A stretch of 6,240 bases of DNA from Nitrospinae bacterium RIFCSPLOWO2_12_FULL_45_22 (GTDB taxonomy: Bacteria > 2-12-FULL-45-22), in assembly GCA_001803565.1 (NCBI GenBank), contig MHDQ01000133.1:1-6240 (forward strand). Direction: 5' to 3'. Shown here piece by piece: positions 1-6,240 of the stretch (position 1 is its first letter; each line of letters begins with the position of its first letter). A program made the position numbers and the translations under genes. A model generated the notes under the pieces. That model worked only from the letters and a program-made list of their open reading frames with translations. It had not been told where the DNA came from and searched no databases.

Positions 1-492
1 TTGAATCTGAAAGATACCTACAGCGAATCTGACCTGGAGGCTGCGATTCTCAGGGAACTGGAATCTTTTATTCTGGAACTTGGCGCAGGATTTACCTTTA
101 TTGCCAGACAGAAGCGAATGACAATTGATAATGAAGACTTCTACCTCGATTTACTCTTTTACCACCGTAAGCTGAAACGGTTGGTGGCTGTTGAACTCAA
201 ACTGGGAAAGTTTAAAGCGGCATTCAAGGGACAGATGGAACTCTACCTGCGGTGGTTGAAGAAGTATGAAAAGGAAAAGGATGAGACCGATCCCCTTGGA
301 CTGATTCTGTGTGCTGAAGGCTCTCATGAACAGATTGAATTGCTGGAGTTGGATAAATCTTCCATTAAGATAGCGGAATATCTAACCGAATTGCCTCCGA
401 AAGAATTACTGGAAAAGAAACTTCATGCAGCGATTGAGAAATCTAAAGAATTGCTGGAGCAACGGGCAGGAGAAAAGAAGGAGAAAGGATAG
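1..492 (+). CDS. DUF1016/YhcG-type PD-(D/E)XK nuclease domain protein, C-terminal part (5' truncated by window)
   Basis: This is the C-terminal nuclease domain of a DUF1016 (YhcG-like) protein. The sequence shows the core PD-(D/E)XK arrangement: Asp50 in FYLDLLFY, then Glu65 and Lys67 in VAVELKLG, followed by a Q-x3-Y motif (Gln78, Tyr82) in GQMELYL. The tail from about residue 132 is charged and helical. The opening LKDTYSESDLE is the usual junction between the N-terminal DUF1016 domain and the nuclease domain, so the TTG at base 1 is most likely an internal Leu codon and not a start. Full-length relatives are about twice this length, and the missing half lies left of the window. Family members often sit inside type I restriction-modification operons, which fits hsdS and hsdR downstream. 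Their biochemical role is not well settled; DNA cleavage or nuclease-fold DNA binding is inferred from the fold. The stop codon lies 6 bp before the next gene, so cotranscription is likely. Family assignment is firm; function is not. Confidence 0.88.
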   Translation: MNLKDTYSESDLEAAILRELESFILELGAGFTFIARQKRMTIDNEDFYLDLLFYHRKLKRLVAVELKLGKFKAAFKGQMELYLRWLKKYEKEKDETDPLGLILCAEGSHEQIELLELDKSSIKIAEYLTELPPKELLEKKLHAAIEKSKELLEQRAGEKKEKG

Positions 493-498
493 GGAAAA

Positions 499-1032
499 AT
501 GAATAAAATAACTGCCAAACAAAGCAATCCATTCTCTACAGGTGGTGGAGGGGTAAATTTTGAGATTCGTGTTCAAGCAGTATTTGTTACATTGATGATG
601 ACTGGAGGATTTGCACCCTGTTTGCCTGCATGGCCTATCAACAAAATTAAACTACAAGGGAAATACAAAGGGTTTGATACCGATGACTTGATTATTTTTA
701 CTAAAAGTCCAGATGGTGAAAAAGAGAGAAAACTACTTGGTCAGATAAAACACTCTATCAGCATTACTGAGGATAATAAAGAATTTGGAAAAGTAATTCA
801 AGCTGCATGGAATGACTTTAAAAATCCAAAATTATTTACAAAAGAGTCAGACGCTATTGTACTCATTACCGGCCCCTTAAGTGTCTCAGACATTAATGAT
901 GTACGGATAATTCTTGAATGGGCGCGTGATTCAGAAGATGCATCTGATTTTCTAACAAAAGTCAATCTGGTTAATTTCAGCAGCAATGCAAAGAGAAAAA
1001 AGTTGAGAGCTTTTCAAAAATGGCGATGCTGA
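499..1032 (+). CDS. Putative QxK-type PD-(D/E)XK nuclease domain; probable 5' fragment of a frameshifted ~1,178-aa gene
   Basis: I do not recognise a named gene, but the layout suggests a restriction-endonuclease-like fold. A glycine-rich N-terminus (GGGG, residues 15-18) precedes a helix with Glu22 (NFEIRVQA). Next come an acidic strand, GFDTDDLIIF (Asp62/Asp63), and LLGQIKHS, with Gln82 and Lys84 forming a Q-x-K active-site variant like that of Mrr/Cap4-type nucleases. A further strand ending in LITGPLS (residues 122-128) fits the core sheet. The start has Shine-Dalgarno-like AAAGGA at 484-489, 9 bp upstream. The ORF ends in QKWRC-stop, which looks out of register: the +1 frame is open from 1007 and reads NGDADLSDDDLWRF straight into the next ORF. 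The most likely reading is therefore the N-terminal domain of a larger protein broken by a one-base change near 1007-1029. An independent 177-residue protein acting with the next ORF is possible but less likely. Nuclease activity is inferred from motifs only. Confidence 0.7.
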   Translation: MNKITAKQSNPFSTGGGGVNFEIRVQAVFVTLMMTGGFAPCLPAWPINKIKLQGKYKGFDTDDLIIFTKSPDGEKERKLLGQIKHSISITEDNKEFGKVIQAAWNDFKNPKLFTKESDAIVLITGPLSVSDINDVRIILEWARDSEDASDFLTKVNLVNFSSNAKRKKLRAFQKWRC

Positions 1033-1063
1033 CCTTTCAGATGATGATCTCTGGCGGTTTATG
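1004..1063 (+). other. Probable frameshift junction joining the nuclease ORF to the large helical ORF
   Basis: The upstream ORF uses the frame of base 499 and stops at TGA 1030-1032. The downstream ORF uses the next frame (+1), which has its last upstream stop at TGA 1004-1006 and is open from 1007 through the annotated ATG at 1061. Any frame change must therefore fall between 1007 and 1029. This interval holds a run of five A (1016-1020). Removing one A gives a protein that passes from LRAFQ to NGDADLSDDDLWRF and then MKSFHLLGYDLD with no break. The ATG at 1061 has only a weak GGCGG (1053-1057) three bases upstream, a poor ribosome-binding site. I read this as an indel in the genome or assembly. 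Programmed frameshifting is less likely, because A-runs usually promote -1 shifts and this needs +1 (or -2). Confidence 0.75.
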
Positions 1064-4036
1064 AAGAGCTTTCACCTTCTTGGGTATGACCTTGATACTA
1101 AGTCAGGCATAATCCTCTCGTTACTTCGATCTCTTATAGGTCAGCATTCTCCTGAAAACGCGCAGTCACTCTGGGCGCAGATTATTGATGAGGTTCAATT
1201 AGCAAATCAAAACGCTGGAACTATCACAGTAGATTCGATTTCTGAAGAACTTCGCTCTGCATTTCAAAGGCGGACTGTGACGACAGTTCCTATTGACCTT
1301 ACCCGAATACCGTCAGTACAGGCGATAACAGATTGGAGCAAAATTAACTATGCTTCAGAACTTGCCATTGCAAGCCTTTTGGGCTCATGGGATGAAAAGT
1401 CAGAGGCGGATAAGGCAATTGCAGGACAACTCGCCAACAACGATTTCGCAGGCTGGATTCCTAAAATACGAGAGATTCTACAAGTACCCGAAAGTCCGCT
1501 TACTCTCAAAAATGGCAAATGGTCTATTAACAGGCGATTAGACTTATGGCAAATAATTGGTCCAAGACTGTTCGATGAACAACTTGACCGTTTCAAACAA
1601 CATGCCGTTAATGTGCTGAAAGAGCACGATCCAAAATTTGAGCTGCCCCCGGGAGAACGATATGTAGCAAGTATCCACGGGAAAGTATCTCGCTATTCCG
1701 GGAACCTTAGAAAAGGACTGGCTGAGAGCCTTGTTCTTCTTGGTAGCTATCCCCAAGCGTTAAACAACTGCTCAACGAACAAAGCAGAGACTATTGCCGC
1801 TCTTGCCATAAGAGAGATATTTGAAGAAGCAGATTGGATTCTCTGGGGAAGTTTAAACAATCTGTTGCCGCTCTTGGCTGAGGCATCTCCAGATCAGTTC
1901 CTTAATGCAGTCGAAGAGGCTCTACAAACCAAGCCATGCCCATTTAACGAATTGTTTGCCCAAGAGGGAAATGGTATCACTGGTGGTAACTATATGACCG
2001 GCTTACTCTGGGCGCTTGAAGCACTTGCTTGGGATGAACAATACTTGACTCGTGTCACTGTCATACTTGGAGAACTGGCCATACTCGATCCAGGAGGCAA
2101 CTGGGCGAATCGCCCTGCCAATTCGCTCACAACAATTTTCCTCCCTTGGCTCCCTCAAACAACTGCACCGGTTGAGAAACGCAAAGTTGCGATTCAGACG
2201 CTTCAGAAAGAACTGCCTGATGTTGCATGGAAACTTCTGCTAAGTCTGTTACCCAACCAGCATCAAATCTCTACAGGGTCGCATAAGCCAGCTTGGCGTC
2301 AGACGATACCCGAAGAGCGATCAAAGGGAGTTACTCATCAAGAGTATTGGGATCAGGTGACATACTATGCAGATATGGCCGTTGATGCGTCTCAGGTTGA
2401 TTTATGCAGATTAACCAAGCTGGTCGAGCATCTTAACAGTATTCCACAACCCGCATTTGATAAACTGCTGGCATATTTTGAATCTGGAGAAATAACTGGC
2501 AAGCCAGAAGAAGAGAGGCTCCCACTGTGGACTAAACTTGTAAATTTTGTTGTAAAACATAAAAGATATGCCGATGCAAAATGGGCATTGAGCCCTGAAC
2601 TGGTTGAAAAAATCAGCAAAATTACTGAAAGACTTGCTCCTCAAAATCCTAAAAACTTATACCGACACCTTTTCAGTAGTCGGGATTTAGATCTGTATGA
2701 AGAAAGCGGCAATTGGGAACATCAACGAAAGAAATTAGAAGAACGCCGACAAAACTCTATCCGGGAAATTCTTGCAAGAGATGGGATTGGAGATGTGATT
2801 AAGTTCGCCGAGGATGTTGAGTCCCCCTGGCGTATTGGGCTATCTTTAGGTTTTGTTGCTGAAGATAACGCGGACTCAGTAATGCTGCCGAAATTGTTGG
2901 ACTCAGGAAACAATAGGTCTGCCCAATTCATAAGTGGTTTTATCGGGAGCCGCTACCAGAACCAAGGATGGACATGGGTAGATCAGACTGATACGTCAGG
3001 TTGGTCAACAAAACAAATAGGTCAATTCCTTGCTAACCTGCCTTTTACAGATGAAACATGGAAACGTTCTAAACAGCTCCTAGGAGCCCATGCTGCTAAG
3101 TACTGGAGCAAGGTCGTTGTGAACCCTTATCAGTCAGAAGGAAGCATTGAAGAGGCCATTGATAAATTGATGGAATATAACAGGCCAAAGGCTGCTCTTA
3201 GCTGCATACACTTTAAGCTATACAATAAACAGCCATTGGACCAGGTTCGAACAATAAAGGCACTGCTTGCAGCAGTCTCGTCAACAGAACCTGCTTATTC
3301 AATAGATGTGTACCAGACGGTTGAGATTATCAAGGCCCTGCAGAATGATCCTAATACTGCTCCCGATGATCTGTTTCTGGTTGAATGGGCTTATTTACCG
3401 CTTCTTGATCGACACCAGGATGCTTCACCGAAACTGTTAGAACAGCGACTGGCGTCTAATCCGGAATTCTTCTCCGAAGTTATTCGTTTGGTTTACCGCT
3501 CCAAGAATAAAAGCAAGTCTGAAAAAGAACCTACCGAGCAGCATCAAGCCATTGCGACAAACGCCTTCCGCCTACTTAGCGAATGGAGGACTCCTCCGGG
3601 TGTGCAGGCTGATGGAAGTTTTTCAGGTGATCATTTCAATCGATGGCTTGATGCGGTCAAAAAAACATGTTCAGAGTCCGGGCATCTCGAGGTAGCTCTT
3701 TCTCATGTTGGAAATGTGATCATTCATTGCCCACCAGATCCTAATGGTCTATGGATTTACAGCTCTGCAGCCAATGCTTTAAATGCTAAGGATGCAGAAG
3801 ATATACGGAGAGGCTTCCGTCTTGGAATATTTAACTCACGTGGAGTTCACTGGGTAGATCCGACTGGAAAAACAGAGAAAGAACTTGCTGCCAAATACAG
3901 ACAACAAGCCGAAGAAGTCGAAACTCATGGATATCAACGTTTTGCTGTCACCCTCAGAGAATTGGCAGATTCGTATGAGCGAGAAGCTGAGCGGATTATC
4001 GATGAGCACAAGACTCGTGGAGCGAACGAAGAATGA
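1061..4036 (+). CDS. Large helical-repeat protein of unknown function; probable C-terminal part of the preceding nuclease gene
   Basis: I do not recognise a named family. The 991-residue product is soluble, has no signal peptide or membrane segment, and appears almost wholly alpha-helical, with many short Leu/Ala/Trp-rich helices like a HEAT- or TPR-type superhelix. I see no Walker A motif (GxxxxGK[ST]), so it does not look like an NTPase. Distinctive segments are WDEKSEAD (residues 110-117), ESPLTLKNGKW (144-154), GNGITGGNYMTGLLWALEALAW (303-324, Gly-rich then helical) and DPGGNWANRPANSL (343-356). From memory these resemble the C-terminal scaffolds of large defence-type proteins in which a nuclease or STAND-NTPase domain comes first; this is unverified. 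The C-terminus (about 940-991) is charged and possibly coiled-coil. Its frame is open back to 1007, so the true start is probably the ATG at 499 before a frame break. Its stop overlaps the hsdS start (ATGA), which implies translational coupling. Possible roles are invader sensing or assembly with the type I complex, both inferred from context. Confidence 0.72.
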   Translation: MKSFHLLGYDLDTKSGIILSLLRSLIGQHSPENAQSLWAQIIDEVQLANQNAGTITVDSISEELRSAFQRRTVTTVPIDLTRIPSVQAITDWSKINYASELAIASLLGSWDEKSEADKAIAGQLANNDFAGWIPKIREILQVPESPLTLKNGKWSINRRLDLWQIIGPRLFDEQLDRFKQHAVNVLKEHDPKFELPPGERYVASIHGKVSRYSGNLRKGLAESLVLLGSYPQALNNCSTNKAETIAALAIREIFEEADWILWGSLNNLLPLLAEASPDQFLNAVEEALQTKPCPFNELFAQEGNGITGGNYMTGLLWALEALAWDEQYLTRVTVILGELAILDPGGNWANRPANSLTTIFLPWLPQTTAPVEKRKVAIQTLQKELPDVAWKLLLSLLPNQHQISTGSHKPAWRQTIPEERSKGVTHQEYWDQVTYYADMAVDASQVDLCRLTKLVEHLNSIPQPAFDKLLAYFESGEITGKPEEERLPLWTKLVNFVVKHKRYADAKWALSPELVEKISKITERLAPQNPKNLYRHLFSSRDLDLYEESGNWEHQRKKLEERRQNSIREILARDGIGDVIKFAEDVESPWRIGLSLGFVAEDNADSVMLPKLLDSGNNRSAQFISGFIGSRYQNQGWTWVDQTDTSGWSTKQIGQFLANLPFTDETWKRSKQLLGAHAAKYWSKVVVNPYQSEGSIEEAIDKLMEYNRPKAALSCIHFKLYNKQPLDQVRTIKALLAAVSSTEPAYSIDVYQTVEIIKALQNDPNTAPDDLFLVEWAYLPLLDRHQDASPKLLEQRLASNPEFFSEVIRLVYRSKNKSKSEKEPTEQHQAIATNAFRLLSEWRTPPGVQADGSFSGDHFNRWLDAVKKTCSESGHLEVALSHVGNVIIHCPPDPNGLWIYSSAANALNAKDAEDIRRGFRLGIFNSRGVHWVDPTGKTEKELAAKYRQQAEEVETHGYQRFAVTLRELADSYEREAERIIDEHKTRGANEE
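4019..4036 (+). promoter_or_regulatory. hsdS ribosome-binding site and ATGA stop/start overlap (translational coupling)
   Basis: GGAG at 4019-4022 lies 10 bases before the hsdS ATG at 4033, inside the end of the large helical ORF. The ATG shares bases with that ORF's TGA at 4034-4036. Such ATGA overlaps usually let terminating ribosomes re-initiate, tying hsdS output to translation of the upstream gene. If the upstream gene is truly frameshifted, full-length translation from 499 would stop at 1032, and coupling would then depend on initiation at 1061 or a similar internal start. Confidence 0.6.
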
Positions 4037-5283
4037 GTAAGCAAAACGAAAACAGACAGGGATATAAGAATACAAAAGTCGGGTGGATTCCTAAAGAGTG
4101 GGCAGTTAAGGTGCTTGGGTCATTTGGTTCATTTTCAAAAGGAAAGGGAATCTCCAATAGCGAAAAAAAAGAAATGGGACTATCTTGTATTACTTACGGC
4201 GAAATTTATACAACCCATGATTATGTTATCAAAGATTTCAATTCCTTTATAGATATAGAGACGGCAAAAAAGAGCCAGCGGATTAAGAGAAATGATGTTC
4301 TCTTTGCCGGTTCTGGTGAAACATTGGATGAAATTGGAAAGTGTGTAGCTTATACAAAAGATGTGGAGGCCTATGCTGGAGGGGATATTGTTATTTTTAG
4401 CCAAAATAACGTTGATTGTATTTATTTGTCGTATTCATTAAATAGTGATTTAATAACCAAACAGAAAAGAAAACTGGGACAAGGTTATTCGGTTGTTCAT
4501 ATTTATTCAAGTGGATTAAAAAAATTGTATGTTCCCCTTCCCCCTCTTCCTGAACAGAAAAGAATCGCTGAAATTCTCTCCGTTTGGGACGAAGCCATTG
4601 AGCAGGTAGCAAATCTGATAAACGCTAAAATAGCACTCAAAAAATCCCTCATGCAACAACTCCTTACAGGCAAGTTGCGGTTTAAGGAGTTTGTCAAAAT
4701 AAAATTTAATAAAATCGAACTAGCGGAGTTTCTGATTCCAACACCAAGGCCAGTTCCAAGGCCAAACTCAGCATATACTGCATTAGGGATTCGCAGTCAC
4801 GGTAAGGGCACGTTCTTAAAGGCAGTAGAAAATCCTGAAGCAGTAATGATGGACACACTTTACGAGGTTAAAGAAGCTGACCTTATCGTAAATATAACAT
4901 TTGCATGGGAAGGTGCAATCGCAATTGTCAAGAAATCAGACGAAGGAGCTTTCGTTTCCCATAGATTTCCAACATATACCTTTAACAGAGAAATAGCCAT
5001 TCCTGAATATTTCAGACATGTCATACGAACAAAACGATTTATACATGAACTTGGACTTGTTTCACCTGGAGGAGCTGGACGAAACCGTGTTATGAGTAAG
5101 ACAGATTTTCTGAATATAGTCGTGTCCATCCCATCAGTAGACGAACAGAAGAAAATAGCAGTAGTGCTGAATGGAATTGATAAGGAGATTGAACTCTTGG
5201 GGAAAAAACTCGAATACTTAAAAACACAGAAAAAAGGCCTGATGCAAAAATTGCTGACAGGCAAGATTAGAGTAAAGGTATAA
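4033..5283 (+). CDS. hsdS: Type I restriction-modification system specificity subunit HsdS
   Basis: HsdS sets the bipartite DNA target of a type I enzyme and binds HsdM, and through it HsdR. The 416-residue length is typical. The N-terminus has the common GWIPKEW entry (residues 17-23). Target-recognition domain 1 spans about 24-168 and domain 2 about 221-366. The central conserved region (about 171-214: LPEQKRIAEIL, then a helix to LMQQLLTGK) is matched by the distal one (about 368-411: DEQKKIAVVL to LMQKLLTGK). These two long helices form the spacer that fixes the distance between half-sites. The two recognition domains are not alike, so the target should be asymmetric; its sequence cannot be read from the protein. 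Domain 2 carries a recognisable HsdS block, GIRSHGKG (252-259) with AWEGAIAI (291-298) and VSHRFPTY (308-315). The gene overlaps the upstream ORF by 4 bp and precedes hsdR by 13 bp. It appears intact. Confidence 0.96.
   Translation: MSKQNENRQGYKNTKVGWIPKEWAVKVLGSFGSFSKGKGISNSEKKEMGLSCITYGEIYTTHDYVIKDFNSFIDIETAKKSQRIKRNDVLFAGSGETLDEIGKCVAYTKDVEAYAGGDIVIFSQNNVDCIYLSYSLNSDLITKQKRKLGQGYSVVHIYSSGLKKLYVPLPPLPEQKRIAEILSVWDEAIEQVANLINAKIALKKSLMQQLLTGKLRFKEFVKIKFNKIELAEFLIPTPRPVPRPNSAYTALGIRSHGKGTFLKAVENPEAVMMDTLYEVKEADLIVNITFAWEGAIAIVKKSDEGAFVSHRFPTYTFNREIAIPEYFRHVIRTKRFIHELGLVSPGGAGRNRVMSKTDFLNIVVSIPSVDEQKKIAVVLNGIDKEIELLGKKLEYLKTQKKGLMQKLLTGKIRVKV
4543..4674 (+). repeat. hsdS central conserved region, first copy of an intragenic repeat
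   Basis: This encodes residues 171-214 of HsdS. It aligns without gaps to residues 368-411 at 19 of 44 identical positions, best at the start (EQKxIAxxL) and end (KKxLMQxLLTGK). The DNA also matches closely near the end (ATGCAA, then ACAGGCAAG). Such repeats form the HsdS spacer helices and are known sites for domain swapping between hsdS alleles. The divergence here argues against recent duplication. Confidence 0.8.
5134..5265 (+). repeat. hsdS distal conserved region, second copy of the intragenic repeat
   Basis: This encodes HsdS residues 368-411, the C-terminal counterpart of the central conserved region. It runs from DEQKKIAVVL to LMQKLLTGK and gives the pseudo-twofold symmetry by which one HsdS binds two HsdM subunits. 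Only five residues follow it, so the protein ends just after the helix, as usual for this subfamily. Confidence 0.8.
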
Positions 5284-5296
5284 AAAGGATGGCACT

Positions 5297-6240
5297 ATGC
5301 AACAAGCCCCGTTAATGAAAGAAGACCATATATCACAAATACCAGCTTTGCAGCTCTTACAGAATCTGGGATATACCTATCTCACTCCTGAAGAGGCGCT
5401 TTCTCTTCGTGGTGGTAAGACACGGAATGTAATACTGGATGGAATTCTCGCAGATCAACTTCGCAAGATGAATGTCGTTCGCTACAGGGGAGAAAAGTAT
5501 CCATTTACAGAAGGAAATATTTTCTCTGCAATTCAGTCATTAAAGGATATTGTCTACGATGGACTTGTGCGCACAAATGAGAAGGTGTACGACCTTCTTT
5601 GTCTTGGCAGAAGCCTCCAGCAGTCAATTGAAGGCGATATCAAGAGTTTTACCTTACAGTATATAGACTGGGAATATCCTGAAAACAATGTCTATCATGT
5701 CACGGAAGAATTTAGCGTAGAACGTGCAGGCAGTAAAGAAGAATACAGGCCGGACATAGTGCTTTTTGTAAATGGCATTCCACTGACAATCATAGAATGC
5801 AAAAAACCTGAGCTCGGTCCGGGAAAGGATCCGATTGAGCAGGCTATCTCTCAGCATATCCGTAACCAGAAAGATGATGGCATCCCGCAGCTTTTCCTGT
5901 ATTCTCAACTTTTGTTAGCAGTTTCTAAGAACGATGCAAAATACGCCACAACTGGTACTCCAATGGATTTTTGGGCAGTATGGAGAGAAGACAACGATGT
6001 AGACGAAGAGATACTTTCTCTCATAAATAAACCTCTTTCAAATGCTCAAAAAGACAAGCTATTTCAAAATAGGTTTAAATATGTCCGTGCGGACTTTGAT
6101 TCAACCGAGAAATCAGGCGGCAGGGAGGTTACTGGGCAGGATCGCGTCTTATATTCGCTTTGCCGTCCAGAACGGCTTTTGGAATTAGCCTATCGTTATA
6201 TTCTCTATGATGCAGGGGAGAAGAAAATAGCACGCTACCA
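5297..6240 (+). CDS. hsdR: Type I restriction enzyme R subunit HsdR, N-terminal part (3' truncated by window)
   Basis: HsdR is the ATP-driven translocase and endonuclease of type I systems, cutting DNA when the HsdMS target is unmethylated. The frame from ATG 5297 is open to the window edge: 314 complete codons and two bases, about a third of a usual HsdR. AAGGA at 5285-5289, seven bases upstream, supports this start; the nearby ATG at 5289 meets a stop after eight codons. The N-terminal nuclease domain is clear: RPDIVLF (Asp153), then TIIECKKP (Glu167, Lys169) as the PD-(D/E)XK centre, then a Gln-containing helix, QAISQHIRNQ (182-191). Next come IPQLFLYSQLLLAVS and a TPMDFWAVWRED-type block, also characteristic of HsdR. 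The segment RPERLLELAYRYILYD near the edge normally leads into the SWI2/SNF2-type helicase domains, which lie beyond the window. All nuclease residues are present, so it should be active if the rest is intact. Confidence 0.96.
   Translation, partial: MQQAPLMKEDHISQIPALQLLQNLGYTYLTPEEALSLRGGKTRNVILDGILADQLRKMNVVRYRGEKYPFTEGNIFSAIQSLKDIVYDGLVRTNEKVYDLLCLGRSLQQSIEGDIKSFTLQYIDWEYPENNVYHVTEEFSVERAGSKEEYRPDIVLFVNGIPLTIIECKKPELGPGKDPIEQAISQHIRNQKDDGIPQLFLYSQLLLAVSKNDAKYATTGTPMDFWAVWREDNDVDEEILSLINKPLSNAQKDKLFQNRFKYVRADFDSTEKSGGREVTGQDRVLYSLCRPERLLELAYRYILYDAGEKKIARY

What the first reader, a model, noticed from the sequence alone, without database searches (positions are those of the whole stretch)
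499..4036. Uncharacterised nuclease plus helical-scaffold gene inside a type I R-M operon, a candidate accessory defence system
Between a DUF1016 nuclease gene and hsdS lies about 3.5 kb that is not part of a classical type I system. It encodes an N-terminal QxK-type nuclease-like domain (Glu22, Asp62/63, Gln82, Lys84) and roughly 1,000 residues of apparent helical repeats. The tight spacing (6 bp before, 4-bp overlap after) shows it belongs to the operon and is not a recent loose insertion. The architecture of an effector domain followed by a large repeat sensor resembles anti-phage proteins of the Avs/STAND type, but I see no NTPase. That would make it a simpler or divergent design, or a partner that borrows the ATPase of HsdR.
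Basis: partly seen in the sequence, partly recalled or inferred. Interest (0 to 1): 0.68.

Follow-up and report, generated by a model that had tools for sequence, protein, structure and literature searches.

The report
Broken NTPase-less nuclease-sensor defence gene
Inside a bacterial restriction operon sits a disabled copy of a large, travelling single-gene immune protein that joins a known DNA-cutting domain directly to a huge helical sensor; unlike its best-studied relatives it lacks the usual ATP-driven switch, and intact copies occur in E. coli prophages.

Summary
The 3.5 kb is real: one ~1,180-aa gene, 6 nt after a DUF1016 nuclease gene and overlapping hsdS by 4 nt. This copy is broken: a 17-nt deletion at ~1020 splits it into a 177-aa and a ~991-aa frame. 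Intact homologues (46-75% identical) occur in Nitrospirota, Melainabacteria-type genomes, a Shewanella plasmid, seven IMG/VR proviral contigs and 7 of 5,426 E. coli genomes (an eighth holds part). AlphaFold shows residues 8-264 to be a Cap4/DUF4297 nuclease (Avs3, LmuA, Cap4 at Z about 13; E22, D62/D63, Q82, K84 invariant). Residues ~285-1181 are a helical solenoid with no Walker A and no Pfam, NCBIfam or PADLOC match.

The two halves are exchangeable modules. The same nuclease is fused elsewhere to intact Avs4-like STAND NTPases or TPRs. The same tail follows another N-domain plus a degenerate NTPase, or stands alone behind antiphage gene gapS6a; one tail gene lies beside PD-lambda-4.

Best reading: a single-gene, Avs-like antiphage effector-sensor without the NTPase switch. 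R-M linkage recurs (3 loci) but is optional, so borrowing HsdR's ATPase is unlikely. Defence is not shown experimentally. New variant of a known kind.

The parts
499..1020 (+). 5' part of the gene: Cap4/DUF4297-type PD-(D/E)XK nuclease core (FE22, DD62/63, Q82xK84), truncated by the deletion before the helical part of the domain is complete
   Evidence: ORF; invariant residues in 17 homologues; model of intact homologue L002 matches Avs3/LmuA/Cap4 at Z 12.4-13.7 over residues 7-264; weak PADLOC DUF626_VIII hit E=1.7e-5
1018..1023 (+). site of a 17-nt deletion relative to L002 and L003; shifts the frame and stops it at 1032 (exact position ambiguous in the A-rich run)
   Evidence: DNA alignment; frame analysis
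1007..4036 (+). 3' part of the gene, continuing in the next frame (first ATG 1061): end of the Cap4 helical part and the ~895-aa helical tail
   Evidence: phrog_18693 E=3.4e-123; helical solenoid in the model
1331..4033 (+). tail module proper (from about residue 285 of L002): possible winged-helix remnant followed by a HEAT-like solenoid; shared with proteins of other architecture
   Evidence: boundary approximate
1..492 (+). 3' part of a DUF1016/YhcG PDDEXK nuclease gene (5' end off the contig); neighbour, probably a separate unit of the same operon
   Evidence: PF06250 E=5.1e-41; PADLOC PDC-S02; a PDDEXK nuclease gene is also directly upstream of a tail protein in Adhaeribacter L011
4033..5283 (+). 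hsdS, type I R-M specificity subunit
   Evidence: PF01420 E=1.7e-22; PADLOC Specificity_I
5297..6238 (+). N-terminal part of hsdR, runs off the contig
   Evidence: PF04313 E=9.7e-39; PADLOC REase_I E=2.3e-73

Best explanation
The gene is a mobile, single-gene antiphage system of Avs-like layout without the NTPase. Its N-terminal Cap4/DUF4297 nuclease cuts double-stranded DNA; its ~895-aa helical tail binds a phage-derived trigger and holds the nuclease inactive until then. Trigger binding would release or cluster the nuclease heads by protein-protein contacts instead of ATP-driven STAND oligomerisation, and indiscriminate DNA cutting then stops the infection, probably by abortive infection. 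The tail looks like the sensor half of a STAND protein whose NTPase was lost: in sister proteins it follows a degenerate NTPase. Shown here by sequence or model: fold of the nuclease, its conserved active-site residues, absence of Walker A, modular exchange of both halves, carriage by prophages and plasmids, proximity to other defence genes. Inferred: defence function, trigger sensing by the tail, autoinhibition, clustering, abortive outcome. In the window itself the gene is broken by a 17-nt deletion and probably inactive.
For: Cap4 fold: 8dgc Avs3 Z 13.7, 9nxx LmuA Z 13.2, 6wam Cap4 Z 13.1, Hachiman 8zue Z 10.7, over residues ~8-264. Catalytic residues invariant in 17 proteins, including Avs4-like STANDs. 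Same nuclease + intact P-loop STAND in L013, L014 (PADLOC Avs4 E=1.2e-114) and L032. Same tail: behind an N-domain + AAA/STAND-like domain without Walker A; behind gapS6a in Buttiauxella and in proviral contigs L044-L046; next to PD-Lambda-4_A in L047; remote similarity of its core motif to PD-Lambda-4_A (hhalign prob. 61 and 53%, E about 1e-4). Carriage: seven IMG/VR contigs; E. coli prophage edge beside tail-fibre genes; Shewanella plasmid beside Abi and SieB genes; Fic and SIR2 neighbours; type I R-M neighbours. A homologous DUF4297 nuclease with HerA degrades dsDNA and acts by abortive infection (PMC11291478).
Against: No experiment on any family member is known to me or was found. The tail has no curated defence model of its own. 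Model pTM is only 0.49, so the domain arrangement and any autoinhibition are untested. The winged-helix reading rests on secondary-structure order only. The degenerate-NTPase model has mean pLDDT 57 and Z about 8. A partner ATPase acting in trans is not excluded.
Confidence: 0.62

Rival explanations
1. It is a dedicated accessory of type I R-M: the nuclease-helical protein works with HsdM/HsdS/HsdR and uses HsdR's ATPase.
For: Tight packing in the window; full hsdM-GmrSD_N-hsdS-AlbA_2-hsdR operon directly upstream in G094; hsdR downstream in L003.
Against: Intact copies stand alone in E. coli and other prophages and on a Shewanella plasmid without hsd genes in the flanks read. Position relative to hsd genes differs in all three linked loci (before hsdS, before hsdR, after hsdR).
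Confidence: 0.1
2. The tail is a sensor that needs a separate partner in trans (ATPase, adaptor such as a GapS6a-type protein, or host factor) to cluster the nuclease.
For: Relatives of the tail sit behind gapS6a; studied Avs proteins need NTP binding (e.g. Avs5, PMC12931631).
Against: The nuclease-tail form is a lone gene with no constant neighbour.
Confidence: 0.17
3. It is a nuclease gene of mobile elements with a role other than protein sensing, such as degrading incoming DNA directly, with the tail recognising DNA or DNA ends.
For: Cap4 relatives are dsDNA nucleases; the tail's fold class (HEAT-like; condensin subunit and FANCI among weak matches) includes DNA-binding proteins; R-M linkage in some loci.
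Against: Copies without R-M neighbours are carried stably; such HEAT matches are generic at Z 6-9.
Confidence: 0.1
4. Two separate genes in the window (small nuclease, large helical protein) that work as a pair, not a broken gene.
For: Both frames open; G011 also has two frames, split at the domain border.
Against: The window split falls inside the Cap4 helical part (residue ~174 of a domain ending near 264), at a 17-nt deletion relative to 72-75% identical intact homologues; nearly all relatives are one frame.
Confidence: 0.06

Closest known systems
Avs3/Avs4 (AVAST; STAND NTPases with Cap4-type nuclease)
   Same: N-terminal Cap4-type nuclease (Avs3 Z 13.7; N-domain shared with PADLOC-Avs4-positive L014, 36% identity) and a large C-terminal helical region
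   Different: No P-loop NTPase at all; the tail shows no sequence match to Avs models; effector joined directly to the tail
Lamassu LmuA, CBASS Cap4, Hachiman HamA, DUF4297-HerA
   Same: Same nuclease fold (LmuA, Cap4 and Hachiman chains at Z 10.7-13.2; DUF4297 compared with Avs3 Cap4 in PMC11291478)
   Different: Those are switched by SMC-type proteins, cyclic nucleotides, a helicase or HerA; here a helical tail is fused on
GAPS6 (GapS6a/GapS6b)
   Same: The same tail stands directly behind gapS6a in several proviral contigs and a plasmid
   Different: The tail proteins do not match the GapS6b model; the window gene has a nuclease and no gapS6a
PD-lambda-4
   Same: Remote similarity of the tail's core motif to PD-Lambda-4_A; a tail protein is its neighbour in E. 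coli
   Different: PD-Lambda-4_A keeps an intact Walker A (GLSGVGKT)
PHROG 18693
   Same: Matches the tail over 891 residues, E=3.4e-123
   Different: Function unknown; the profile is 1,258 long and its first 353 positions are not matched
PADLOC DUF626_VIII and PDC-M54A
   Same: N-domain similarity: DUF626_VIII to the window N-domain, PDC-M54A to relatives L013 and L014
   Different: Only the N-terminal region is shared

Membership tests
Cap4/DUF4297-type PD-(D/E)XK nuclease domain | Cap4-type fold over the domain | tested here: met
   Model of L002: Z 12.4-13.7 to Avs3, LmuA, Cap4 over residues ~8-264
Cap4/DUF4297-type PD-(D/E)XK nuclease domain | Conserved E, D, Q/E-x-K active-site residues | tested here: met
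   E22, D62/D63, Q82, K84 invariant in 17 sequences, window included
Cap4/DUF4297-type PD-(D/E)XK nuclease domain | dsDNA endonuclease activity | not testable with these tools
   Needs biochemistry
Avs (STAND NTPase defence) | P-loop STAND NTPase with Walker A between effector and sensor | tested here: not met
   No GxxxxGK[ST] in any intact member; three STAND controls gave it; no Pfam NTPase hit in the window frames
Avs (STAND NTPase defence) | N-terminal effector plus large C-terminal helical region | tested here: met
   Architecture and helical solenoid; sensing itself untested
Avs (STAND NTPase defence) | Recognition of a phage protein and activation on binding | not testable with these tools
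   Needs experiment
Type I R-M subunit | HsdM, HsdS or HsdR domain content | tested here: not met
   No Pfam or PADLOC R-M match in either frame
GAPS6 | GapS6a partner and GapS6b model match | tested here: not met
   No gapS6a-like gene in the window and no NF047936 match; tail relatives have the partner but not the GapS6b match
PD-lambda-4 | Full-length PD-Lambda-4_A match and Walker A | tested here: not met
   No PADLOC PD-Lambda-4 hit for the window or intact relatives; only remote core-motif similarity

The most novel reading that the evidence does not exclude
A self-contained immune receptor in which a Cap4 nuclease is gated directly by a STAND-derived helical sensor without any NTPase, i.e. 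NTP-independent pathogen sensing and activation in an NLR/Avs-like lineage, with the ~895-aa tail as an unnamed sensor module shared by several otherwise different prophage defence proteins.
Probability: 0.45. Interest if true: 0.74.

Novelty: new variant of a known kind. Interest (0 to 1): 0.52.

Why it matters
In studied Avs and NLR-type receptors the NTPase is the switch that turns recognition into activation (for Avs5 its Walker residues are required, PMC12931631). A family that keeps the same nuclease and a sensor-like tail but has no NTPase would test whether that switch is dispensable. It also points to a module shared by at least four architectures, present in E. coli (nuclease-tail form in 8 of 5,426 complete genomes, a sister form in 204), so it is easy to test in a laboratory strain.

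Tried and rejected
One-base homopolymer error as cause of the split: rejected, 17 nt are missing. Phage records (INPHARED): no match to L002 and one weak match over 11% of L017, so carriage is by proviral or fragmentary contigs. Sequence search of the PDB with single proteins and profiles: nothing significant. Foldseek of the whole model listed generic HEAT/karyopherin proteins at the top; the Cap4-type matches appeared in the VIA second look. BFVD: nothing useful. Searches with the Buttiauxella and L028 tail proteins in viral contigs found no relatives by single-sequence patterns; the alignment query worked. PD-Lambda-4_A profile against handle genomes: nothing rang, uninformative. GiPD474 (PMC12724215) was checked and is unrelated: a predicted ParA-like ATPase. 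Literature on GAPS6 was not found in the held library; its antiphage label here rests on NCBIfam.
Full report
What is there. The window is one whole 6,240-nt contig. It carries, on the + strand, the 3' part of a DUF1016/YhcG PDDEXK gene (1-492; PF06250 E=5.1e-41), the feature in question (499-4036), hsdS (4033-5283; PF01420) and the start of hsdR (5297-6238; PF04313).

One gene, broken. The feature is two frames: 499-1032 and 1061-4036 (open from 1007). Intact homologues L002 (Nitrospiraceae MAG), L003 (Bacterium BMS3Abin06) and L004 (Gastranaerophilales MAG) are single frames of about 1,180 aa, 72-75% and 53% identical to the window over the tail. At the join the window lacks 17 nt present in L002 and L003. 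dN is about 0.14-0.17 and dS about 0.9-1.9 against these relatives in both halves, and dN is no higher than between the two intact copies, so the lesion is young. The break falls inside the Cap4 helical part, so the 177-aa product is unlikely to be a working nuclease (inference). Whether the deletion is fixed or an assembly variant cannot be told here.

Distribution. Intact nuclease-tail genes were found in seven IMG/VR contigs, four of them near-identical (L017-L020), on conjugative Shewanella plasmid pSBAL11702, in two further genomes drawn from the phylum of the Gastranaerophilales genome (L067, L068), in G094, drawn from the phylum of L002's genome, and in E. coli: 8 of 5,426 genomes hold a match, 7 with at least 80% coverage. 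A second frameshifted copy is in G011, split at the nuclease-tail border.

Neighbourhoods. Three loci are R-M linked: the window; L003, where hsdR follows; and G094, where a complete hsdM-GmrSD_N-hsdS-AlbA_2-hsdR operon ends 165 nt before the gene. The others have prophage genes (tail fibre and assembly genes in E. coli; repressor-like gene and integrase in L016), Abi and SieB genes, Fic and SIR2 genes, an Xre/ImmA-like pair (by eye) or a recombinase (by eye). So it is a mobile single-gene cassette that also lands in R-M operons.

The nuclease. AlphaFold2 of L002 with a 16-row alignment gave mean pLDDT 79 and pTM 0.49, with helix-strand-strand-strand-helix-strand order in residues 18-124. VIA-align gave Avs3 8dgc Z 13.7 (214 residues, 4.9 A), LmuA 9nxx Z 13.2, Cap4 6wam Z 13.1 and Hachiman 8zue Z 10.7; these stand above the generic helical rows. 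E22, D62/D63, Q82 and K84 are invariant in 17 N-domains. The same domain is joined to P-loop STAND proteins (L013, L014, L032, L035, L036) and to TPRs (L012).

The tail. Residues ~285-1181 have no Pfam or NCBIfam match above cut-off and no PADLOC match, one PHROG of unknown function (phrog_18693), and no Walker A. It occurs in other architectures: (a) after an N-domain with a conserved GWDG/WE[FI]G pattern and a middle domain whose model resembles AAA/STAND NTPases (Foldseek top hit Avs4 8dgf, E=6e-3; VIA Z about 8; low-confidence model) but which lacks Walker A, sometimes with an HTH in front; (b) alone, directly behind gapS6a (NF047935 E 5e-41 to 8e-38). In a tree of 26 tails the GapS6a-linked tails form one group (100/100) that lies among the nuclease-tail set, while the N-domain + degenerate-NTPase form lies in two separate places, so N-termini have been exchanged on the tail; several deep branches are long. 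In L047 a tail gene lies opposite a gene that is PD-Lambda-4_A itself (2,530 bits), and the tail profile aligns remotely with that protein. A helix-helix-helix-strand-strand-helix order at 291-362 would fit a winged helix left from a STAND protein; that is inference only.

How it most likely works. Cap4-type nucleases are activated by being brought together: the DUF4297 domain must dimerise in DUF4297-HerA, and that system degrades host and phage DNA (PMC11291478). By analogy the tail is best read as sensor and lock, and trigger binding as the key. What is missing is the NTPase, which is required in Avs5 (PMC12931631). Either the tail does the job without nucleotide, or an unknown partner supplies it. 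Using HsdR for this is unlikely as a general rule, because several copies have no hsd genes in the flanks read.

Verdict. The window copy is a recently broken member of a mobile effector-sensor family: a new variant of the Cap4-nuclease/Avs-like kind, with defence function inferred and not demonstrated.

Noticed in passing
L047:5992-9738 and L047:1673-5524: A 1,248-aa tail protein (N-domain + degenerate NTPase + tail) lies on the opposite strand next to PD-Lambda-4_A in an E. coli prophage-like element; 204 of 5,426 E. coli genomes hold matches, and the ten best listed are all interrupted by IS3.
   Followed up: partly
L009:6534-9628, L044:5573-8706, L045:745-3905: gapS6a is followed not by a gapS6b match but by the tail module, with an N-terminal 'QNHTGTGHNVAG'-like motif; 7 E. 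coli genomes.
   Followed up: partly
L012:4869-9371: The same Cap4-type nuclease domain fused to TPRs in Burkholderia cepacia plasmids, near a PDDEXK (DUF1016-like) nuclease gene and a SIR2 gene.
   Followed up: no
L011:2821-7682: Adhaeribacter plasmid: a PDDEXK (DUF1016-like) gene lies 11 nt upstream of a tail protein, as DUF1016 lies 6 nt upstream in the window.
   Followed up: no
L026:1468-5095: G011 copy is split into a 340-aa nuclease frame and an 871-aa tail frame overlapping by 11 nt, at the domain border: frameshift or natural two-gene form.
   Followed up: partly
L064:3792-11049: Type I R-M operon in G094 with a GmrSD_N protein between hsdM and hsdS and a Schlafen/AlbA_2 protein between hsdS and hsdR.
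   Followed up: no
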